From Gephyromycinifex aptenodytis (GTDB lineage: Bacteria > Actinomycetota > Actinomycetes > Actinomycetales > Dermatophilaceae), in the NCBI RefSeq assembly GCF_012277275.1, contig NZ_CP051155.1, positions 310,001-374,000 of the forward strand: 64,000 nucleotides of DNA, read 5' to 3'. Position numbers and translations under genes: made by a program. Position 1 is the first letter of the stretch; each line of letters begins with the position of its first letter. Shown piece after piece: positions 8,879 through 52,724 of the stretch. The notes under the pieces are model-generated. The model did not search any database, had not been told where the DNA came from, and saw only the letters and a list, made by a program, of their open reading frames with translations.

Positions 8879-11251
8879 ATGACTGACACCTCAGGGTCGA
8901 CCACAGCCAGCGAGCGTCCCGCCGCAGCTGGCGGCCCTGAGGGCGCTACGGCTGCTCCTACGACGACCGGCTCGTCGTCCTCGCTGCGCGCCCGTATCGC
9001 GCGGCTGGGCTCTCGCCACCACGCCCACCCGGTTCTGGAGCCGTTGCTACGCACCGTGCGGGCCACCCACCCCAAAGCGGATGTCTCGGTCATCGAACGC
9101 GCCTACGAGGTGGCTGAGCGCTCCCACGAAGGCCAGGAGCGGGCGAACGGCGACCCCTACATCACGCATCCGTTGGCGGTGACAACGATCCTGGCCGAGC
9201 TCGGGATGACACCGGTGACGCTGGCGGCCGCGTTGTTGCACGACACGGTCGAGGACACCTCGTACTCCCTGGACGACCTGCGCGCAGAGTTCGGCGAAGA
9301 GATCGCGATGCTCGTCGATGGCGTCACCAAACTGGACAAGGTGCGCTACGGCGACGCGGCCCAGGCCGAGACTGTGCGCAAGATGGTCATCGCCATGGCC
9401 CGCGACATCCGGGTTCTGGTCATCAAGCTCGCCGACCGGCTGCATAACGCCCGGACCTGGCGTTATGTCTCACGCTCCTCCGCCGAGAAAAAGGCCCGCG
9501 AGACGCTGGAGATCTACGCGCCGCTTGCTCACCGGCTGGGCATGAACACCATCAAATGGGAACTCGAGGACCTGGCGTTCGCCACGCTGTACCCCAAGGT
9601 GTACGACGAGATCGTGCGGATGGTGGCGGAGCGGGCCCCGGCCCGTGAGGAATACCTGGCCAGCGTCAAGGACCAGGTGGCTGAGGACCTGCGGGTCTCG
9701 CGGATCGCCGCGACCGTGACGGGGCGCCCCAAGCACTACTACTCCGTGTACCAGAAGATAGTCGTGCGCGGCCGGGACTTCGAAGACATCTACGACCTCG
9801 TGGCCGTGCGGGTGCTGGTGGAGACGGTGCGCGACTGCTACGCGGCACTGGGGGCGATGCATGCCCGATGGAAGCCGATGCCGGGGCGGTTCAAGGACTA
9901 CATCGCGATGCCCAAGTTCAACATGTACCAGTCGTTGCACACGACGGTGATCGGGCCTGAAGGCAAACCGGTGGAGATCCAGATCCGCACCCACACCATG
10001 CACCGCCGGGCCGAATACGGCGTGGCTGCGCATTGGAAGTACAAGGAAGTCAGCGGGACGGTCGCTGCAGGCACCCCCCAGCCGGGGGATGCCCCCGGCG
10101 ATTCGATGACCGACATGGCCTGGCTGCGTCAGTTGCTTGACTGGCAGCGGGAGACGGCCGACCCGGGCGAGTTCCTGGACTCCCTGCGGTATGAGATCAA
10201 CGCTCGCGAGGTGTACGTCTTCACGCCCAAGGGCGGTGTGATTGCGCTGCCCTTGGGTTCGACCCCGGTCGACTTCGCCTACGCCGTGCACACCGAGGTC
10301 GGCCACCACTGCATCGGTGGGCGGGTCAACGGGCGACTGGTCCCGTTGGAGAGCCAGCTGGAGAACGGCGACGTCGTCGAGATCCTCACCAGCAAGACCG
10401 ACGGCGCCGGGCCTTCCCAGGACTGGCTGACGTTCGTGAAGTCGCCGCGGGCCCGCAACAAGATCCGGCAGTGGTTCTCCAAGGAGCGCCGCGAGGAAGC
10501 GATCGAGCAGGGCAAGACTGCGATCGCGCAGGCGATGAAGAAGCGCAACCTGCCACTGCAACGCCTCATCACGGCCGAAACGCTGCAAACCCTGGCCAGC
10601 GAGCTACGTTTTGCCGACATCGACGCGCTGTATGCCGCAGTCGGTCAGAACACCGTCTCGGCGCAGAGCATCGTGGAGCGGGTCGTGGCCACGCACGGCG
10701 GCGAGGACGGCGCCGAAGAGGACCTCGCTGAGGCGACGCTGCCCGGCTTCGCCCCGCAGCGGCGCACCCGAGGCAGCGCCACCGATCCCGGCGTGGTGGT
10801 CAAGGGCGTCTCGAACGTCTACACCCGGTTGGCGCGTTGCTGCGCTCCCATGCCCCCGGACGAGATCATCGGCTTCACCACCCGGGGCACCGGCGTCTCG
10901 GTGCACCGGACGGACTGCACCAACGTGGACGGGTTGCAAGGCCACCCCGAACGAATCATCGAGGTTGAGTGGGCACCCTCGGCTTCCAGCCTGTTCCTGG
11001 TGCAACTGCAGGTGGAGGCGTTGGACCGCAGCAGGTTGCTGTCCGATGTCACCCGAGTGCTCTCGGATCACCACGTGAACATCCTGTCGGCCTCGGTGAA
11101 GACCTCACGAGATCGCGTGGCACAGTCCAAGTTCCAGTTCGAGATGGGCGACCCGGGTCACCTGGACCACGTGATCAAGGCGGTGCGCCGCATCGACGGC
11201 GTCTTCGACGTGTACCGCACCACGGGAGGTAAGGCAGACCGCAGGCTCTGA
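8879..11251 (+). CDS. rel: Bifunctional (p)ppGpp synthetase/hydrolase Rel
   Basis: This 790-residue enzyme makes and degrades (p)ppGpp in the stringent response. After a poorly conserved N terminus (1-45) comes the HD hydrolase domain with HDTVED, implying hydrolysis is active. The synthetase domain follows ([27 protein letters not shown]), then TGS ([24 protein letters not shown]), a zinc-finger-like region ([17 protein letters not shown]) and a C-terminal ACT domain. Single-copy bifunctional Rel is normal in actinobacteria. It appears leaderless. Confidence 0.97.
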
Positions 11252-18779: not shown

Positions 18780-19158
18780 CCACCCATCTTCCCCCGGAGG
18801 CGGGCGTGTGGCGCGATGAGGGGGCCACGCATCGCCGATCCGCTCAACCAGCGACGTGCGCGCAGCGCGGGTCTAGGTCGTGCTCGCACCGACCAGTGGA
18901 CCTTCACCAGGGACGACAGCCGCGGTATGGGCGCGGGTCCCGTCGTGGGGTCAGCTGCCGCAGCGGCACGCCCAGGTTGTCGTGGGACACGCCGCTGCGA
19001 GGCCCGGTGCCGCCCTACGCGCCAGAACTCGGCGAAAAAGCCAGCGACGCGACCAAGTTCGTGTTGCAGCCTCGATGAGAGCGGGCGGACCCGCGCACGT
19101 CTGCGCCTGCCGGCGCGTTCGGCTTCGTAGACTCCCCAGGTCTGAGCGAGGAGTAACT
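18780..19158. other. Intergenic region upstream of xerD
   Basis: About 380 nt separate the divergent membrane protein gene and xerD. Open frames here lack a ribosome site and have no recognisable sequence, so no gene is called. A TAGACT box at 19128-19133 could be the -10 of xerD, giving a leader of about 18 nt. Confidence 0.5.
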
Positions 19159-20094
19159 ATGGGCGAGTTGCCAAACAGCGGTATCGGTGCGGCGATGCGC
19201 GCGTGGCTGAGTCAGCAGCAGGTCGAGCGCGGAATCGCCCACAACACGGTCCTGTCCTACACCCGCGATCTGGCCCGGTACGCGGCCTACCTGGACGAGG
19301 TCGGCATCGACCGGCTGGCTGATGTGCGCTCGAACCATGTCAGCGACTTCCTCCAGGCTTTGCGCCAGGGCGACGAACAGCACCGCCCGTTGTCGATCGC
19401 CTCGGCGGGTCGCGCCCTCATCGCCGTCCGCGGCTTCCATCGCTTCTTGCTGCTGGAAGGGGAGACCGAGCAGGATCCGGCGGCTGACATCACCCCGCCA
19501 CGACCCGTCCAGCGGCTGCCCAAGGCGATCACCATCGACGCGGTGGAGCGTTTGATCGACGCGACCGCCTTCGGAGAGGGCCCGATGCCGTTGCGAGATC
19601 GGGCGCTGATCGAGTTGCTCTACGGCACCGGCGCCCGCATCAGCGAAGCGATCGGCCTGGACGTGGATGACCTCGACCTGGAATCAGGCCAGGTGCGCCT
19701 GCTCGGCAAGGGAAACAAGCAGCGGATCGTGCCGCTGGGACGGTATGCCTCGCGCGCGCTAGATGACTATCTGGTGCGGGGGCGGCCCATTCTGGCGGCA
19801 CGGGGTACGGGCACGCCCGAAGTGTTCCTGCATGCCCGCGGTGGGCCGCTGTCTCGCCAGAGCGCCTGGGCAGTGATTCGCGCTGCTGCCCGGCGCGCCG
19901 GGATCGCGGGCGACATCGGCCCGCACACGCTGCGCCATTCATTCGCAACGCACCTGCTCGACGGCGGCGCAGACGTGCGGGTGGTCCAGGAACTCCTCGG
20001 CCATGCCAGCGTCTCGACGACACAGATCTACACCCTCGTCAGTGCTCAACACCTCCGTGAGGTCTATGCCCAAGCTCACCCCCGGGCGCGCTGA
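19159..20094 (+). CDS. xerD: Site-specific tyrosine recombinase XerD
   Basis: XerD, with XerC, resolves chromosome dimers at dif. The 311-residue protein has the SAM-like N-terminal domain and the full catalytic set: R160 (GTGARISEA), K184, H256 and R259 (HTLRH), H282 (LLGHAS) and nucleophile Y291 (TTQIYTLVS). The ATG at 19159 follows GAGGAG at 5 nt spacing; the open frame continues upstream without family sequence. The order xerD-parA-scpA-scpB is a conserved actinobacterial chromosome-maintenance cluster, so this is the housekeeping enzyme and not a phage integrase. Confidence 0.94.
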
Positions 20095-28428: not shown

Positions 28429-28502
<74 letters not shown>

Positions 28503-43410: not shown

Positions 43411-44916
43411 TCACTGCCCGGCGGCTCGGCTGAGCGCCCGCAGCCAGAGCGCCCCGGCGCTCGCGGTGACCAGGCTCGAGGCGAGGATGCCGAGGAGGAC
43501 CCGGAACGGGTCGGTGCTGACCAGGGGGAAGACGTAGCCGGTGGCCACCCAGGTCACCTCGACGATTTGGGGAGCGGCGAACACCAGGCCCATCGCGGTG
43601 CCCAGGATCGTGGTCGCGATAGCCGTGCCGGTACCGAATCTGGCCGCCAGCCACAGGTTGAGGGTGCTCAGCGTCACCGCGCAGGCCGCCAACGCCACTA
43701 GGAACAGCGTCGACCAGGAGCCGGTGAACAGGAGCAGAGCGGCGCACCACAGCCACATGGCAGCCAGCCGGGCCAGCACATCCACGGCCAGGGCCCCCGC
43801 CACAACCGATGTGCGGGTACGGACGGCCAGGGCGCGCAGCGCGGGCTGTTGAGCGTTCCAGACCAAGCATGCCAGCAGGCAGGTGCCGAACGGCAGCAGC
43901 ACGCCGCCGGTGAACGCCATGACGCCCTGGCCCTCCCACAGCAGCGCGACCGCCACCAGCAGCGCTGCGGCCGTGATCGTCAGGGCATCGATCGGGGTAC
44001 GCCGAAGCGAGCCGGACATGGCCAGCACCCGGTGTGGCCGCCCGGTATGCCACGAGCCTTCGGTGCGCACGGCAGGATTGGCCGCCGTCGGGGCCGGGTT
44101 TGCGGCGCCGTGGCGCCACAGGCGCAGCCTGACCGGCCCCCAGGTCGCAGTGGCTGCCACGACTATCAGCCCCAGCGCCAGATTCGCGAACGCCAGCGGC
44201 CAGACCGGGTACTCCCACACCGGCGAGCCCGCTTCCAGCGCGACCCCGTTGGCGTGCACTCCCAAGACCGGGAGCATCGGGCGCACCATCCACGTCCACG
44301 GCTGCCACCACCAGGAGGCTTTCTCGGCCATGAGCGTGCCCGCCAGCTGCCACACCAGCCCCGCGCCGAGTGCGAAGCCCATGGAGGTCAGTCGGGAGAG
44401 GAGGATCGCCAGCGCGATCCACAGCCCGCTGGCTGCCCACAAGAGGAAACCGGTCTGCAGTGCCATTCCCAGCGGCGGCTCTGGCAGACCGGCAGCCAGG
44501 CCGAAGCCCAACATGGGCACGGTGATCGCCAGGTCGAAGAAGAGCACTGCCAGGTACAACACCGCGGCGCGGGCCAGGGAGATGGTTCGCGGCGAGACCG
44601 GACGCCATAGAGTCCCGCCTTCGCGGGCGCGGGACTCGCGGCCGATGTGCAGGCCGACGACGAGCCCGATCAGTGGGCCTTGCATGGCGGTGGCGTAGAT
44701 GACCGTCCAGAAGTACAACTGGTGCCATGAGCTCAGCTCCTGGGTTGCCACGACCCACCAGCCCAGGCCCTGCAGGATGGCGATCAGCAGGCCCAACATC
44801 GGGATCCGCAGCGTGGAACTGCGCCGGGAACGGAGGAGTTCGGCGCGCAGCGCAGCTGCGAATCCGGGCTGCGGCGTGCCGATCAGGGTGTGCTCAGAGA
44901 CGTTCGTGGCATTCAT
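43411..44916 (-). CDS. ABC-2 type permease, fused double module (lantibiotic-immunity-like)
   Basis: The 501-residue protein holds two similar six-helix ABC-2 modules. The first begins AALRAELLRSRRSSTLRIPMLGLL and continues with YATAMQGPLIGLVVGLHIGRESRAREGGTLW, the latter characteristic of LanE/LanG immunity permeases (for example MutE/EpiG). No signal peptide is expected. ATG 44916 overlaps the stop of the ATPase gene. Probable role: extrusion of a membrane-active peptide; this is inference. Confidence 0.8.
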   Translation of the reverse strand: MNATNVSEHTLIGTPQPGFAAALRAELLRSRRSSTLRIPMLGLLIAILQGLGWWVVATQELSSWHQLYFWTVIYATAMQGPLIGLVVGLHIGRESRAREGGTLWRPVSPRTISLARAAVLYLAVLFFDLAITVPMLGFGLAAGLPEPPLGMALQTGFLLWAASGLWIALAILLSRLTSMGFALGAGLVWQLAGTLMAEKASWWWQPWTWMVRPMLPVLGVHANGVALEAGSPVWEYPVWPLAFANLALGLIVVAATATWGPVRLRLWRHGAANPAPTAANPAVRTEGSWHTGRPHRVLAMSGSLRRTPIDALTITAAALLVAVALLWEGQGVMAFTGGVLLPFGTCLLACLVWNAQQPALRALAVRTRTSVVAGALAVDVLARLAAMWLWCAALLLFTGSWSTLFLVALAACAVTLSTLNLWLAARFGTGTAIATTILGTAMGLVFAAPQIVEVTWVATGYVFPLVSTDPFRVLLGILASSLVTASAGALWLRALSRAAGQ

Positions 44917-45701
44917 GCTGCGCCCTGCCCGTCAAGGTGTCCGTCGAGCTGGTGGGTGGCGCGCAGGTAGGCGGCCTCCAAATCCCCATCCGGGGCCAGA
45001 TCGGCCAGCGGCCCCTGGTAGACGAGGCGGCCTTGGGACAGAATGCCGATGTCGTCGGCCAGGTGGCGTACCTCACCGAGCTGGTGGCTGCTGATGAGGA
45101 CGGTGCGGCCCTGCTCGGCGAGGTCGCGGATCAGCCGACGCAATTCGATGATGCCCTCAGGGTCCAGGCCGTTCTGTGGTTCGTCGAGCACGAGCACCGC
45201 CGGGTCGGTGAGCAACGCGATCGCCAACGCGAGCCGGGCCTTCATCCCGGTTGAGAACTTCGCGGCGGGTTTGCGGTCACTACTCGAGAGCCCGACCAGA
45301 GCCAGAACGTCGTCGACACGCGAACCCGGCACCCCCATCAGTCGGGCGTGGACCATGAGGTTCTGCCGGGCGGACAGGTGCTGGTAGAGCGCCGGCCCGT
45401 CGATGGAGGCGCCCACGTCGGCCAACGCCGCCCGAGCCGCCCCCTGACCGAGAACGTCGACCTGGCCGGCGTCCGGTTTCACCAACCCGAGCATGATCTT
45501 CAAAGTGGTGGACTTTCCGGCGCCGTTGCGCCCGAGCAGGGCGTACACCCGCCCCGGGGTTGTCCGCAGCGACACTCCGCGAAGAACCTGCTGGCCGCGG
45601 AAGCTCATGACCAGCCCGCGGCACGAGAACTGTGACGCGCTTGGGCCGAGGTTCGGGGTGGGCTGCGGGCTGGGGGAGGAGTGTGAGGTCATGCCATCCA
45701 T
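44913..45701 (-). CDS. ABC transporter ATP-binding protein (LanF-like)
   Basis: The 262-residue ATPase has Walker A GRNGAGKST (57-65), a signature of the degenerate form FSTGMKARL, typical of LanF/BcrA-type ATPases, Walker B VLVLDEPQNGLDPEGI and switch SSHQLGEV. It is coupled to the permease (ATGA overlap). ATG 45701 and 45692 are both possible starts. It follows the response regulator gene by about 120 nt. Confidence 0.9.
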   Translation of the reverse strand: MDGMTSHSSPSPQPTPNLGPSASQFSCRGLVMSFRGQQVLRGVSLRTTPGRVYALLGRNGAGKSTTLKIMLGLVKPDAGQVDVLGQGAARAALADVGASIDGPALYQHLSARQNLMVHARLMGVPGSRVDDVLALVGLSSSDRKPAAKFSTGMKARLALAIALLTDPAVLVLDEPQNGLDPEGIIELRRLIRDLAEQGRTVLISSHQLGEVRHLADDIGILSQGRLVYQGPLADLAPDGDLEAAYLRATHQLDGHLDGQGAA

Positions 45702-45820: not shown

Positions 45821-46522
45821 TCAGGGCAGCAGGATCGGGCCGTCCCCGGACACCAGTCCGGCGGCGTGCGCCAAGACGACCAGCGCCACCCGGTCGCGGG
45901 CGTGCAACTTCATCAGCAGGTTGCCCACGTGGGTCTTCACGGTCGTCTCGGCGATGAACAGCTCGGTACCGATCTCGGTATTGGTGTGCCCCCGCGCGAT
46001 CAGGCACAGCACCTCCAACTCGCGCGGGGTCAACTCCGCGAGTATTGGTGCCGCGGCCTGTCGTTGCTGCGCTGGCTGTAGACCTGCAGGCTCGCGTAGC
46101 GCTTCCAAGACGGCCGGAGCCGCCTGCGGGTCGATGACGGCTTCACCTCGATGCACCGCCCGGATCGAATCGAGCAGCACTGCTGGGTCGGCATCCTTCA
46201 GGAGGAACCCGCGGGCGCCGGCCGCGAGCGCCCCGAGCACCAATTCATCCAGGTTGAAGGTCGTCAACACCAGTACGCGGGGCCGGCCTCCGGCCGCCAC
46301 GATGCGCTCGGTGGCCTTGATGCCATCCAGGCCCGGCATCCGAATGTCCATGAGGATGACGTCGATGGCTTCTTCGCCGGCCAACACCGCTTCGACGGCT
46401 TCGTAGCCGTTGCCGGCTTGGGCCGCGACGCACATGTCGGGTTGGGCGTCGATGAGCGCGCTGAACGCCGAGACCAGCAACGGCTGGTCGTCGGTGATCG
46501 CCACCCGGATCGTCTCGCTCAC
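45821..46522 (-). CDS. NarL/LuxR-type response regulator
   Basis: The 233-residue protein has a receiver domain with phosphoacceptor D59 (VILMDIRMPG) and a C-terminal LuxR helix-turn-helix (LTPRELEVLCLIARGHTNTEIGTELFIAETTVKTHVGNLLMKL). It likely controls the ABC exporter genes just downstream. GTG 46522 overlaps the TGA of the decayed kinase remnant upstream, so its partner kinase was once the adjacent gene. The intact kinase is now at 51339-52568. Confidence 0.93.
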   Translation of the reverse strand: MSETIRVAITDDQPLLVSAFSALIDAQPDMCVAAQAGNGYEAVEAVLAGEEAIDVILMDIRMPGLDGIKATERIVAAGGRPRVLVLTTFNLDELVLGALAAGARGFLLKDADPAVLLDSIRAVHRGEAVIDPQAAPAVLEALREPAGLQPAQQRQAAAPILAELTPRELEVLCLIARGHTNTEIGTELFIAETTVKTHVGNLLMKLHARDRVALVVLAHAAGLVSGDGPILLP

Positions 46523-46640
46523 AGCGTTTCTCCCTGCCCAGTTGTTGTCCTCGCCGATGACAGCGGCGCACTGAACCTCACGACGAACTCGTCCTCGACC
46601 TTTCGGCCCGGAACCGGCTGCTCACCAGGTTGTCGTCGAC
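46519..46640 (-). pseudogene. 3' remnant of a sensor histidine kinase
   Basis: About 100 nt just ahead of the response regulator align with the last about 95 nt of the intact kinase gene (51354-51448). By eye there are about nine substitutions, a 3-nt and a 1-nt indel. It encodes the C-terminal FVVRFSAPLSS stretch, then a different tail (TTTGQGETL) whose stop overlaps the regulator start. The 1-nt indel breaks the frame, and no upstream part is left. Confidence 0.8.
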
Positions 46641-46665
46641 ATGATCGACGAAGGCGGGCACCGGG

Positions 46666-47508
46666 TCACGTTGCGACTCCCACATCGGTGGCCAGGCGAG
46701 CCACATGCAGAGTCAGATAAGAGAGTTCAGCCTCGTTGAGGTGGTGCCCGTCCATCACCAGCACCCCCTGCAACCGCTCGGCCACCCGCCAGGAGTTCGG
46801 GTGAGCAGTACGTATCGACTCGATCAGGAGCGCGGGCGCCTGGGTCACCTGTCCCTGTTGGGCCAGGCGGACGAAGAGGTATCGCAGATGGGTGACGAAA
46901 CGAGCTACCGACATCGATTGGTCGTCCAGCGCGGTATCGAACGCCGCAGCTACGACCGAAAGCACCTGTCGGATCCGGTGAGTCATGGCCACGGTATGGG
47001 CCATGTTGCGCCCCGCCACCTGGGCGTTGACGAAGTGCAGAGCGAAAGCGGTGGCCTCCTCCGGCGGCAGCCGCACATCATGGTCGCTGGCAATGATGTC
47101 CAGGGCCTCACGACCGGCGGCCAGCTCCTCCGGGAAGAGTTGAGCCACCTCCCACGCCAGCGGGTACGCTGCCGCCTCGTGATCACGGTGGCGCACCGCC
47201 ACGCTGAGATGATCCGCCACCGCGAGCAGGAGTGCCTGGGTCGGTTCCAGCCCGGTGCGCCTGCGATAGGCGCCAACGATGCGGCCTGCGGTTTCGGTGA
47301 TCTCCAAGGGGAGATCACCGAGCAGGCCGGCCAGCCGACCGATCGAATGCTCGCCGTCAGGCACGAACGTCTGCGTCACGGAGGCGACGTCCACCGGGTC
47401 ACCGAGATGGCGTCCGAAACCGAGTCCCTTGCCCATGAGGACAACCCGGGTGCCGTCGTTCCGCTGAGCCAGAACGGCGTTGTTGTTGAGCACCCGAACA
47501 ACCTGCAC
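46666..47508 (-). CDS. bglG: BglG/LicT-family transcriptional antiterminator
   Basis: The 280-residue protein binds the RAT hairpin in nascent mRNA to prevent termination. It has an N-terminal co-antiterminator RNA-binding domain (VQVVRVLNNNAVLAQ, 1-55) and two PTS regulation domains, PRD1 (about 65-165) and PRD2 (about 170-275), phosphorylated by the PTS. GTG 47508 has AGGAGG 6 nt upstream; the frame is open beyond it but without family sequence. It is the last gene of the beta-glucoside operon and its target is visible at 51133-51160. Confidence 0.92.
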   Translation of the reverse strand: MQVVRVLNNNAVLAQRNDGTRVVLMGKGLGFGRHLGDPVDVASVTQTFVPDGEHSIGRLAGLLGDLPLEITETAGRIVGAYRRRTGLEPTQALLLAVADHLSVAVRHRDHEAAAYPLAWEVAQLFPEELAAGREALDIIASDHDVRLPPEEATAFALHFVNAQVAGRNMAHTVAMTHRIRQVLSVVAAAFDTALDDQSMSVARFVTHLRYLFVRLAQQGQVTQAPALLIESIRTAHPNSWRVAERLQGVLVMDGHHLNEAELSYLTLHVARLATDVGVAT

Positions 47509-47576
47509 AGGGCTCCTCCTACTGGTGGTGTGGTGCGGGCGGGGGGCGACGACATCGCCCGAGACCCGACGTCGCT

Positions 47577-49037
<1,461 letters not shown>

Positions 49038-49044
49038 TCAGGTA

Positions 49045-50988
49045 TCACGCGGTGGTGGCGGACGGGTCAGGAACCTCGCTCGGCCGCCGGATGGCGGTGA
49101 GTACCGGGTCACCATGCTCGACGTCAGTGCGCTCCTCGGGAACGACGTCGGCGTAGGCCGCGGTGTTGGTGACGACCAGGAGGGTGGTCGCGGCAAAGCC
49201 CGCCTCGGCGATGACGCCGCGATCGAAGTCCATGAGGGCGTCACCGGCGCGGACGCGCTCACCTGAGCTCACGCGGGCGGTGAAGCCACGACCCTGGAGT
49301 CGAACGGTGTCGATTCCGACGTGGATGAGAAGTTCAAGGCCGCGGTTCGAACGCAGTCCGATCGCGTGCGGCATGAGCGCGACGACCTCCCCGTCGCAGG
49401 GCGCGTACACCGTGGAATCGGAGGGTTCGATGGCCACGCCGCGTCCCATCGCGCCGGAGGCGAAAACGGGGTCGGGTACCTCGCCGAGGGGCAGCAGGTG
49501 GCCGCTGACCGGGGCGCTCACCGCGATGGTGTCTTCACCCGCGGCCAGGACAGCGGTCGCGCTTGCAGCCTCGGTCGTTGAGTTGCCGGCGGCTTCGACG
49601 TCGGTGCCGAGGTCCTCTGCGGGATCGTCGAAGCCGGTGACGATGACCAGGACTGCTGCCAGGAGGAACGCCACCAGGGCGCCTACCGATACCCACAGCA
49701 GCGAGGATGTCCCGGCCTTGTGGGCGTTGACGATGGTGAGTGGACCGGGCAGACCCGCATACACGTATTGGCGGGCACCGAAGATCGCGATGATGACGGC
49801 TCCCACCGCGCCGCCGATGCAGCCCATGACGAACGGCTTTTTGAGGCGAAGCGTCACGCCGTAGATCGCGGGTTCGGTGATGCCGAAGAATCCGGTGGCG
49901 GCCGCGGAAGCGGCGACGCCCTTCATCTGCCGGTTGCGCGACCGAAGGAAGACACCGAATGCCGCGCCGACCTGACCGATTACCGCGGCGGTTTGGAAGG
50001 CTTGGAAGGAATCCTGGCCGTACTTGTCGAAGTTCTCCAGCACCATCGGGGTGACACCCCAGTGGATGCCGAAGATGACCGCCACCTGCCAGAAGCCTCC
50101 GATGAGGGCGGCGGCGACGGGCGGCGCAGCCGCGACGAGCGCGTTGTAACCGTTGGCGAGGCCGCTAGCGGCGCCGGCGCTGAGCGGACCAATGAGCAAC
50201 AGGGTCAGCGGCACCATGACGATCAGGCAGATGAACGGTTCGAAAAGCTGCTTGGCTGTGCCGCGCAGCACCCGGGAGAGTCCGCGCTCGAGGTAGGACA
50301 GCACCCACACCAGGAACAACGGCGGCAGGACCGAACTCGTGTACACGGTCTGCGTGAGGGGAAGTCCGAAGAAGGTGACGTGTTCGCCTTCGCCGATGCG
50401 GGCTGCAATCTCGCCCCACGTGGGATTCATGATTGCGGCGCAGCACAGGACAGCGATGAAGGTGTTGACCTTGAAGTGCCTGGCCGCGGTGATGGCGATG
50501 AAGATGGGCAGGAACGTGAACGGCGTCCACGACATGAAAGAGAGAACCTCGAAGGCGCCCGTCTTTTCAAAGTCAGGCCACGCCATCGTGGTCAAGATGA
50601 GAGAACCCTGAAGGATGCCGGCAGCGGCGAGGATGTAGATGAAGGGCGCGAACACTGCGGACATCGTGGCGATGACCCGATTGAGCACTGATTGCTTGGG
50701 CGCGTCGCCCTCGTGTCGAGCGCCATCCAGGTGAGCGGCGTCAATGAACGCGTCGTGAACCTCACCGACGTGGGCGCCGATGACGACCTGGAATTGCCCC
50801 CCGTTTTCAACCACGGTGATAACTCCTGGCATCTGCGTCACCGCGGCCCTGGCGCCCGCTGGAGTGGTCCGCAGGACCAGACGCAGTCGGGTGGCGCATC
50901 GCGTGGCGTTCACGACGTTGTCCGTTCCCCCGACGGCGTCGAGGATGTCGTGGGCGAGTTTTGGATAGTCACGTACCGGCTCAGCCAT
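49045..50988 (-). CDS. bglF: Beta-glucoside-specific PTS transporter, EIIBCA
   Basis: The 647-residue protein imports and phosphorylates beta-glucosides. Order: EIIB (1-85) with phospho-Cys31 (NATRCATRLR), EIIC membrane domain (about 105-460) and EIIA (about 490-620) with His556 (LLIHVGIDTV). The EIIA sits at the C terminus as in the Bgl class. It heads the operon and follows the RAT leader. EI and HPr are not in this window. Confidence 0.94.
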   Translation of the reverse strand: MAEPVRDYPKLAHDILDAVGGTDNVVNATRCATRLRLVLRTTPAGARAAVTQMPGVITVVENGGQFQVVIGAHVGEVHDAFIDAAHLDGARHEGDAPKQSVLNRVIATMSAVFAPFIYILAAAGILQGSLILTTMAWPDFEKTGAFEVLSFMSWTPFTFLPIFIAITAARHFKVNTFIAVLCCAAIMNPTWGEIAARIGEGEHVTFFGLPLTQTVYTSSVLPPLFLVWVLSYLERGLSRVLRGTAKQLFEPFICLIVMVPLTLLLIGPLSAGAASGLANGYNALVAAAPPVAAALIGGFWQVAVIFGIHWGVTPMVLENFDKYGQDSFQAFQTAAVIGQVGAAFGVFLRSRNRQMKGVAASAAATGFFGITEPAIYGVTLRLKKPFVMGCIGGAVGAVIIAIFGARQYVYAGLPGPLTIVNAHKAGTSSLLWVSVGALVAFLLAAVLVIVTGFDDPAEDLGTDVEAAGNSTTEAASATAVLAAGEDTIAVSAPVSGHLLPLGEVPDPVFASGAMGRGVAIEPSDSTVYAPCDGEVVALMPHAIGLRSNRGLELLIHVGIDTVRLQGRGFTARVSSGERVRAGDALMDFDRGVIAEAGFAATTLLVVTNTAAYADVVPEERTDVEHGDPVLTAIRRPSEVPDPSATTA

Positions 50989-51081
50989 GAGAAGCCCTTC
51001 CTGCGGCGCCGACTACCGTGTCGACGAATGAAGTTCTACGGGAACGATTGGTGTTTCGCCGCGGGCCGCAGTGCCGATACG

Positions 51082-51146
51082 AAAAAGAGGCAACACATCG
51101 CAGGCAGAGTAATGACGCGCACTCCGGCCCCGAGTATTGCCTCTTT
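51082..51146 (-). terminator. Leader terminator of the beta-glucoside operon
   Basis: On the minus strand AAAGAGGCAATAC (51146-51134) can pair with GTGTTGCCTCTTT (51096-51084) with one G-U pair, followed by Ts, forming a long terminator hairpin with a 37-nt loop about 95 nt before the EII start. Its left arm overlaps the RAT. Confidence 0.75.
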
Positions 51147-51160
51147 CGAGTAACAAGCTC
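51133..51160 (-). promoter_or_regulatory. Ribonucleic antiterminator (RAT) target of BglG
   Basis: The minus strand reads CTTGTTACTCG then AAAGAGGCAATA, matching the LicT/BglG RAT pattern (TTGTTACT, short spacer, AGGCAAAA-like arm). Bound BglG would hold this hairpin and prevent the overlapping terminator. Confidence 0.75.
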
Positions 51161-51183
51161 GACATCCGTAAGGAATTGCATGG

Positions 51184-51213
51184 AGGCTACCCCCGCGTGT
51201 CGGCCGCCTGCAA
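51184..51213 (-). promoter_or_regulatory. Candidate promoter of the beta-glucoside operon
   Basis: On the minus strand TTGCAG (51213-51208), an 18-nt spacer and TAGCCT (51189-51184) lie just upstream of the RAT, giving a start point about 15-20 nt before it. Confidence 0.55.
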
Positions 51214-51338
51214 GGGGGCTGCGGACACGAGGTCCTGACCGCGAAGTGCGTCGTAGCTGATTGCTTCCTGCCGCCTCAGCTCTGTTGTGGCCGGCGGCAC
51301 CAGCCCACCATCAGCCGTGAGGTCGCGGGAGCCCCGAC

Positions 51339-52568
51339 CTAGGAGGTCTGCAGCCCAGTTGTCGTCGCTGATGACAGTGGCGCGCTGAACCTCACGACGA
51401 ACTCGTCCTCGACCCTCTCGGCCGAGAACCGGCCGCCCACCAGGTTGGCGCGTTCTCGTAAACCGAGCAGGTCATGTCCCGCGCCTCGTTCGGACGGCGC
51501 TACCTGCGACCCATCCGAGGCTGGGATGGGGTTGCTGAGATGCATGAGGACGTCCTGGCCTTCCTGGGAGACCCGAAGGTGAGCCTGCGGGTTGGGGCCG
51601 CCGTGTTTGACGACGTTGGTCAGTGCCTCTTGAACAGCACGCACCATCGCCAGGCGGGCCGGTGTCGGCCAACTGCTCTGCCAGGCGCGCAAGGTGTCCG
51701 GGTCGGGCAGCTCCGTGGTTATCGCCACACCGTTGGCGCGAGCTTGATGCACCAGGTACGGGATCGTCGTCACGTCACCGACCGGCGTCTGGTCCTGCGC
51801 CCGCAGCACCCCCACCAGGGAGCGCACCTCGGCCAGGGCGTCCCGGGAGGCGTCCCGGGTGTTCTCCAGCGCTGAGCGCACAGCCTCGGGAGTGCCGATG
51901 GCCAGCCCGGAGGTGGCCTGCACCTGCACGACGGTGAGGCTGTGCGCGACGATGTCGTGCAACTCCCGGGCGATCCGAATCCGCTCCTGGGCGGCCGCCG
52001 ACTGCGCGGCCTCCTGGGCAGCTTGCCGGGCTTGGCGCTGCTGACGTGCCACGGCACGTCGATGCGCAGCGTCATTGCGCGCCAAGGTCGCTGCCCACAA
52101 GTAGGTGATGACGCACAACAGCACATGCAGCAGCAGGCTGGCGCGAGTCCACATCTGCACCACCGGGCTGCCGAACGAGCCCACCAGGGTCAACAGCAGC
52201 CCGGCCAGCCCCCACCACGGGTTGGGCACCCAGCGCGTCACGGTCCACAGGCTGATCGGGGCGCAGAACAGCAGGGGAGTGACCCCGAGGTTGACCGGGC
52301 TGGTGAAGACCACCAGCGCCAGTGCCGCCATCGCCGCGAAGGTCACGATGAACGCCGTGCGCGGTTTTGTGCGGCGAAGCAGCAACGCCACGCTCAACAC
52401 CAGGTGAATCGCTAGATTGGCCAGGTAAGCCCAATACGGCCCGTACTCGAGGATGAAAGTGGCCTCCATGGCGCTGACACACAGCGCCAGGCCACCGAGC
52501 ACCAGGTCGATCACAGGGGGGCGTCGCACCCGAACCATCGTAGGTTTCGCCCGCGGCAGGCGCCTCAT
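51339..52568 (-). CDS. NarL-partner sensor histidine kinase (HisKA_3 type)
   Basis: The 409-residue kinase has about four or five N-terminal hydrophobic segments, a dimerisation motif with phospho-His204 (ARELHDIVAHS) and an HATPase with GAGHDLLGLRERANLVGGRF. Such kinases pair with NarL/LuxR regulators. None adjoins it; the regulator at 45821-46522, next to a remnant of the same kinase end, is the likely partner. ATG 52568 is chosen; TTG 52619 and ATG 52538 are in frame and none has a clear ribosome site. Confidence 0.88.
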   Translation of the reverse strand: MRRLPRAKPTMVRVRRPPVIDLVLGGLALCVSAMEATFILEYGPYWAYLANLAIHLVLSVALLLRRTKPRTAFIVTFAAMAALALVVFTSPVNLGVTPLLFCAPISLWTVTRWVPNPWWGLAGLLLTLVGSFGSPVVQMWTRASLLLHVLLCVITYLWAATLARNDAAHRRAVARQQRQARQAAQEAAQSAAAQERIRIARELHDIVAHSLTVVQVQATSGLAIGTPEAVRSALENTRDASRDALAEVRSLVGVLRAQDQTPVGDVTTIPYLVHQARANGVAITTELPDPDTLRAWQSSWPTPARLAMVRAVQEALTNVVKHGGPNPQAHLRVSQEGQDVLMHLSNPIPASDGSQVAPSERGAGHDLLGLRERANLVGGRFSAERVEDEFVVRFSAPLSSATTTGLQTS

Positions 52569-52724
52569 CCCGCGGTAGGAGGCGCGAAACTGCACGACGT
52601 CCGGCGCGGGGCTCGGCAACGGTCGGCGAAGCGGGGAACCGGTGGCCTCAGGCAGCGCTCAGGACACGGGCTCTATCCTTGCCGCGTCCATCGCTGGTGG
52701 GCCGAGCAACCTAAGGAGACAGCC

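What the first reader, a model, noticed from the sequence alone, without database searches (positions are those of the whole stretch)
46519..52568. A beta-glucoside operon appears to have split a kinase/regulator pair and left a kinase remnant
The LuxR-type regulator (45821-46522) lacks an adjacent kinase, and the intact HisKA_3 kinase (51339-52568) lacks an adjacent regulator. The 4.7 kb between them is a complete BglF-BglA-BglG operon. A decayed copy of the kinase 3' end (about 95-100 nt, about nine substitutions and two indels against the intact gene) lies directly upstream of the regulator, and its stop overlaps the regulator's GTG. This suggests kinase and regulator were coupled. The block may have been inserted at the kinase 3' end, with the incoming DNA supplying a new end, in the way islands reconstitute a target gene. 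A tandem duplication followed by deletion is the alternative.
Basis: partly seen in the sequence, partly recalled or inferred. Interest (0 to 1): 0.72.

Follow-up and report, generated by a model that had tools for sequence, protein, structure and literature searches.

The report
Sugar operon inserted inside a kinase-regulator pair
In this bacterium a beta-glucoside-use operon sits between a sensor kinase gene and its partner regulator gene, which relatives keep side by side, and a worn copy of the kinase's tail end still marks the old joint; the regulator and the transporter behind it may now answer to the sugar operon's switch.

Summary
A 101-column repeat of the kinase 3' end (intact 51353-51450; remnant 46536-46635; 10 substitutions, one 1-nt and one 3-nt indel) flanks a complete bglF-bglA-bglG operon. 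Five relatives of the same family carry kinase-luxR-ABC ATPase-permease contiguously; kinase and luxR trees each unite our genes with those five (100/100). In four of the five the kinase stop overlaps the luxR start, and the remnant keeps that overlap, so it is the native joint. bglFAG relatives lie elsewhere in two of the five. The split is therefore derived: a bgl block of about 4.8 kb entered at the kinase 3' end. How is open: no tyrosine integrase or tRNA lies close by; other recombinases and transposases were not searched for. Island-like reconstitution is allowed, not shown. New here: the displaced ATPase resembles lantibiotic-protection ABC subunits, and the bgl leader has a RAT-like antiterminator overlapping a strong terminator. 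The consensus scan saw no terminator between bglG and luxR, so luxR and the transporter are probably read from the bgl promoter under BglG antitermination, while the kinase keeps its own transcript. That rewiring is inferred and untested. A well-documented operon insertion of moderate interest.

The parts
51339..52568 (-). HisKA_3 sensor kinase, intact (frame open to a TTG at 52619)
   Evidence: Pfam HisKA_3 E 2.1e-16; orthologues in five relatives
51339..51352 (-). new kinase 3' tail and stop, not matching the native joint
   Evidence: repeat identity stops at 51353
51353..51450 (-). intact copy of the kinase 3'-end repeat
46536..46635 (-). decayed copy of the kinase 3' end (remnant)
46519..46535 (-). 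native kinase-luxR joint: AGGGAG and TGA overlapping the luxR GTG
   Evidence: same kind of overlap in G014, G109, G130 and G071
46636..51352 (-). inserted bgl block (4,717 nt, plus one repeat copy)
   Evidence: nothing comparable between kinase and luxR in five relatives
49045..50988 (-). bglF, beta-glucoside PTS EII (B, C and A domains)
   Evidence: TIGR01995 613.4 bits, cut-off 614.7; Pfam EIIB, EIIC, EIIA
47577..49028 (-). bglA, GH1 6-phospho-beta-glucosidase
   Evidence: NF007154 755.7 bits, cut-off 624
46666..47508 (-). bglG/licT-type antiterminator (CAT_RBD plus PRD)
   Evidence: Pfam; best NCBIfam match LicT, below its cut-off
51184..51213 (-). promoter-like TTGCAG-N18-TAGCCT of bgl
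   Evidence: read by eye; similar spacing in G109; not found by the consensus scan
51132..51160 (-). RAT-like antiterminator hairpin
   Evidence: core pattern once in the window, 0.04 expected; also upstream of G109 bglF, not in G006 or G129 stretches
51080..51146 (-). leader terminator stem overlapping the RAT 3' arm
   Evidence: 51080-51150 folds at -36.1 kcal/mol, z -5.75
45821..46522 (-). LuxR-type response regulator
   Evidence: orthologues in five relatives
44913..45701 (-). ABC ATPase, lantibiotic-protection-like (start inferred)
   Evidence: TIGR03740 243.5 bits, below cut-off 309.75 (on 44913-45698)
43411..44916 (-). ABC permease, MutE/EpiE- and MutG-like
   Evidence: TIGR03732 and TIGR03733, below their cut-offs

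Best explanation
The ancestral operon was kinase-luxR-ABC ATPase-permease, probably a peptide-antibiotic-sensing and detoxification module. A bglF-bglA-bglG operon with its own promoter, RAT and terminator entered at the kinase 3' end and duplicated about 100 bp of it, so the kinase kept a working end with a new tail and the native end stayed beside luxR and decayed (insertion: well supported, about 0.9; route: unknown). luxR and the transporter lost the kinase promoter and are now most likely transcribed through from the bgl promoter, so that BglG antitermination at the RAT gates them (inferred, about 0.5). The kinase is made from its own transcript, which the leader terminator should stop, and can still phosphorylate LuxR in trans (inferred).
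For: Contiguous operon in five of five relatives found with the pair; one clade with 100/100 in both trees; repeat; remnant keeps the native stop/start overlap; bglFAG in G109 and G129 at other loci; RAT-like site and overlapping terminator upstream of bglF; no promoter- or terminator-like site in 46500-46800 and no unusual fold in 46523-46668 (z -0.10).
Against: No congeneric genome appeared among those searched, so no empty site close in sequence was seen; orthologues are only 42-45% (kinase) and 63-69% (luxR) identical. No mobility gene or island border beyond the repeat. The exact RAT core is upstream of bglF in G109 but absent from the G006 and G129 stretches. The RAT hairpin alone is weak: -4.9 kcal/mol, and 51127-51158 folds no better than shuffles (z 0.09). 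No expression data. The scan knows only sigma-70 consensus sites and short-loop terminators, and missed both the bgl promoter and the leader terminator, so its silence before luxR is weak evidence. The RAT consensus is recalled.
Confidence: 0.65

Rival explanations
1. Island-like integration: a mobile element recombined within the kinase 3' end, supplied a new 3' end to the kinase and displaced the native end to its far side; the integrase has since been lost.
For: Position at a gene 3' end, a direct repeat of about 100 bp at both ends, an intact target gene with a new tail. A 30-nt identical core lies between a 5' part with six non-synonymous changes and a frameshift and a 3' part with three synonymous changes, one ambiguous change and a 3-nt indel.
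Against: No integrase among the block's genes; the nearest of three tyrosine-integrase matches in the genome scores as XerD, 26 kb away; cargo is only bgl; the 5' side of the core is the more diverged one; the substitution pattern was noticed after the fact, on ten sites, one of them ambiguous.
Confidence: 0.27
2. Tandem duplication of the kinase, then replacement of most of the second copy by the bgl operon, leaving its 3' end beside luxR.
For: Also leaves one full kinase and a 3' remnant with the native joint.
Against: Needs two events. The 178 nt between kinase stop and RAT have only short matches elsewhere in the genome, and none to the kinase upstream region among the 20 of 43 repeat families listed. 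No relative has a second kinase copy in the stretch read.
Confidence: 0.2
3. Homologous or homology-assisted uptake of DNA in which a bgl operon already lay next to a related kinase 3' end.
For: Mostly synonymous differences in the 3' part of the repeat; own bglA is closer to G109 (80%) than G109's is to that of its congener G006 (77%).
Against: None of the family genomes with a kinase or bglA match above the cut-offs has the two side by side, our own excepted; bglF gives the opposite closeness (G006-G109 68%, own-G109 62%); with the other equally good indel placement the fourth 3' change is non-synonymous.
Confidence: 0.22
4. Separate control only: luxR and the transporter have their own promoter in the remnant or the bglG 3' end and are independent of bgl.
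For: luxR keeps a ribosome-binding site; 143 nt lie between bglG and luxR.
Against: No sigma-70-like site found there, though the scan also misses the bgl promoter; in four relatives measured there is no space for a promoter between kinase and luxR, though one inside the kinase gene is not excluded.
Confidence: 0.35

Closest known systems
bgl/lic operons with BglG/LicT antitermination (S. mutans bglP-licT, PMC1489936, passages read; E. coli bglGFB, search listing only)
   Same: PTS permease, CAT-PRD antiterminator and a RAT close to the promoter that overlaps a terminator; phospho-beta-glucosidase (recalled for the family)
   Different: order bglF-bglA-bglG, and a response regulator and ABC transporter follow in the same direction
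CprABC/LanFEG-type lantibiotic ABC modules with a two-component system (PMC8003753, passages read; LanFEG recalled)
   Same: ATPase and permease match lantibiotic protection or immunity families best; kinase and regulator are linked to them in relatives
   Different: LuxR-type regulator and HisKA_3 kinase; a single long permease; in our genome bgl cuts the kinase off; family scores are below the curated cut-offs
Genomic islands that reconstitute a target gene 3' end (recalled, no paper read)
   Same: direct repeat at both ends, target gene kept whole, displaced 3' end on the far side
   Different: no integrase and no mobility gene recognised; only a metabolic operon as cargo

Membership tests
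BglG/LicT-controlled beta-glucoside operon | PTS EII, phospho-beta-glucosidase and CAT-PRD antiterminator together | tested here: met
BglG/LicT-controlled beta-glucoside operon | RAT overlapping a terminator in the leader | tested here: met
   by sequence pattern and terminator fold only; the RAT hairpin alone is weak and the RAT consensus is recalled
BglG/LicT-controlled beta-glucoside operon | induction by beta-glucosides | not testable with these tools
   needs transcripts
Genomic island with 3'-end reconstitution | direct repeats of the target gene end at both borders | tested here: met
Genomic island with 3'-end reconstitution | integrase in or next to the element | tested here: not met
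   tyrosine type; serine recombinases not searched for
Genomic island with 3'-end reconstitution | empty site in close relatives | tested here: inconclusive
   five relatives have the joint without bgl, but at 42-45% kinase identity; no congener among the genomes searched
Lantibiotic ABC resistance module | ATPase and permease reach curated family cut-offs | tested here: not met
   TIGR03740 243.5 of 309.75 bits; TIGR03732 70.3 of 145.2
Lantibiotic ABC resistance module | linked two-component system | tested here: met
   in five relatives; split in our genome

The most novel reading that the evidence does not exclude
A sugar-triggered antitermination switch has captured a peptide-antibiotic-type response regulator and exporter: in this genome beta-glucosides, through BglG at the RAT, set how much regulator and transporter is made, while the separated kinase still sets their activity, giving a two-input gate made by one operon insertion.
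Probability: 0.35. Interest if true: 0.6.

Novelty: new member of a known kind. Interest (0 to 1): 0.42.

Why it matters
It is a well-documented case of one operon entering another with the scar still readable: outgroups show the old order, the remnant shows the old joint, and the cargo brings its own on-off switch upstream of the displaced genes. It makes the question of how a two-component pair behaves when its genes pass to different control directly testable.

Tried and rejected
Unlinked origin of kinase and regulator: rejected, both trees and the gene order in relatives agree. Regulator partnered with another kinase: not seen; the two other own pairs that I examined are adjacent and fall outside the clade (the genome has 10 kinase and 20 regulator matches, most not examined). 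Chance repeat: rejected. Nearby recombinase as the island's integrase: set aside, it scores above the XerD cut-off and lies beside ParA- and ScpA-like genes. tRNA-Pro at 28429 as attachment site: no exact second copy of 16 nt or more of it in the window. Source of the 178 nt between kinase stop and RAT: short matches only. Rfam: one match, below its gathering score, of no use. The genome-contig scan with the kinase gave two loci at 29-30% identity, so no named relative. bglA over 394 class genomes drawn evenly: only our own at E 1e-230 or better. Paper searches returned nothing; in 34, 37, 44, 56 and 57 I saw listings only (12 of 34, 1 of 1, 10 of 117, 8 of 157 and 8 of 17), with nothing on this arrangement in them; passages of PMC6850760 had nothing of use. 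G013 has a partial regulator, an ATPase fragment and no kinase match; it was left out of the trees. A first RAT pattern with the wrong spacing found nothing; the corrected one is.

I lowered the best explanation from 0.72 to 0.65 and the first and third rivals from 0.30 and 0.25 to 0.27 and 0.22 for that.

Full report
What is there. On the minus strand the order is kinase (51339-52568), bglF, bglA, bglG, a decayed kinase 3' end, luxR (45821-46522), an ABC ATPase and an ABC permease. The two kinase ends align over 101 columns, 51353-51450 against 46536-46635, with 10 substitutions, a 1-nt deletion and a 3-nt insertion in the remnant; the score is 130 against at most 31 in 300 shuffles. The block between the repeats is 4,717 nt; 46640-51338 has 64.5% G+C against 67.2% for the window.

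Were kinase and regulator a pair? Among 186 genomes of the family, our own included, kinase matches at E 1e-60 or better are in 4 besides our own (G014, G071, G109, G130) and luxR matches at 1e-66 or better in 4 besides our own (G014, G071, G129, G130). In these searches at most 9 and 15 candidates a genome were scored, so orthologues may have been missed. Reading the loci gave the missing partner in G109 (luxR, 58%) and in G129 (kinase, matched in two frames), so five relatives have the pair. In all five the order is kinase-luxR-ATPase-permease with no other gene between kinase and luxR. In G071 the kinase match stops at residue 353 and its C-terminal part continues in another frame up to luxR. 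Eight further, more distant kinase-luxR loci, taken from the best hits, also have the two within 0.6 kb (in G044 the 0.58 kb between the matches was not examined). Trees of 16 kinases and of 16 regulators each put our gene with those of the five, at 100/100; the two other own pairs examined fall outside. G013, with a partial regulator and no kinase match, was left out.

The native joint. In G014, G109 and G130 the kinase TGA overlaps the luxR start codon in the ATGA or GTGA manner; in G129 there is a gap (the nearest start codon lies just after the stop); G071 shows the ATGA overlap. In our genome the remnant's kinase frame ends in a TGA overlapping the luxR GTG, behind an AGGGAG site. The intact kinase instead ends with a tail that departs from the remnant after the shared ACAACTGGGC. 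So the remnant is the original joint and the split is derived.

Where bgl comes from. Close bglA (E 1e-200 or better) occurs in 3 of 186 family genomes besides our own: G006, G109, G129. In G109 and G129 the full bglF-bglA-bglG order is found away from the kinase-luxR locus; in G006 bglF and bglA are about 4 kb apart and no bglG match was found in the stretch read. The three surroundings look different from each other and from ours (judged from translated reading frames, without a domain search). Identities do not decide between transfer and relocation: for bglA own-G109 (80%) exceeds G109-G006 (77%, same genus), but for bglF G109-G006 (68%) exceeds own-G109 (62%).

How it entered. The genome has three tyrosine-integrase matches; the nearest, window 19528-20049, belongs to a protein scoring above the XerD cut-off beside ParA- and ScpA-like genes. 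The window's only tRNA is at 28429. I did not search for serine recombinases or transposases; none of the eight proteins scanned is one. Read along the kinase, the first six substitutions are all non-synonymous, with the frameshift among them, then come a 30-nt identical stretch, three synonymous substitutions, and a tenth substitution next to the 3-nt indel that is synonymous in one placement of the indel and non-synonymous in another equally good one. Leaving the tenth out, so clean a split of six and three has a chance of 2 in 84 if dealt at random; with the tenth non-synonymous the split is not clean. I looked for this after the fact, and synonymous sites are not evenly spread. It would fit a recombination junction in which the 3' parts come from two coding genes; simple decay after duplication is not excluded.

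What it probably does. The bgl leader has a RAT-like hairpin at 51132-51160, of the form GAG-C-UUG-UUA-CUC-GAAA-GAG-G-CAA-UA-CUC; G109 has the same layout with GGG/CCC for the outer stem. The resemblance to the LicT RAT layout is recalled; PMC1489936 (passages) describes a RAT near the promoter that overlaps a terminator and has two conserved bulges. The core pattern, with up to two mismatches, occurs once in the window (exactly) where 0.04 are expected; 4 of 100 shuffles had one. In 108 fetched loci the exact core is in five copies of this place and in G109, and not in the G006 and G129 bgl stretches. Against it: the hairpin alone is weak (-4.9 kcal/mol), and 51127-51158 folds no better than its shuffles (z 0.09). 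Its 3' arm is the 5' arm of a stem at 51080-51146 ending in a T run (-36.1 kcal/mol, z -5.75 for 51080-51150). No terminator- or promoter-like site was found in 46500-46800, but the scan also missed the bgl promoter and this long-looped terminator, so its silence is weak evidence; 46523-46668 folds as its shuffles do (z -0.10). The likeliest reading is that luxR and the transporter now ride on the bgl transcript.

What the captured genes are. The ATPase matches the lantibiotic-protection ATPase family best (243.5 bits, cut-off 309.75) and the permease the MutE/EpiE and MutG families, all below cut-off, so 'peptide-antibiotic detoxification module' is a lead. [quoted passage not shown]

Verdict.

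Noticed in passing
window 18880-20094: Tyrosine recombinase scoring above the XerD cut-off, beside ParA- and ScpA-like genes.
   Followed up: yes
L069 (G071), about 10926-11129: The kinase orthologue's reading frame shifts near an A-rich stretch; the C-terminal part continues in another frame up to luxR.
   Followed up: partly
L082 (G129), about 7019: The kinase orthologue matches in two frames that meet here: a frameshift or a sequencing error.
   Followed up: no
G129 contigs C1 and C3: Three regulator matches with identical scores at C1:31877, C1:4383225 and C3:32433 suggest redundant contig ends in the assembly.
   Followed up: no
L047 (G013): A partial regulator, an ATPase fragment and no kinase match: perhaps a decayed copy of the same operon.
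   Followed up: no
window 46523-46668: After the 1-nt deletion the 3' half of the remnant is in the reading frame of bglG, with only the bglG stop between, up to the luxR start.
   Followed up: no
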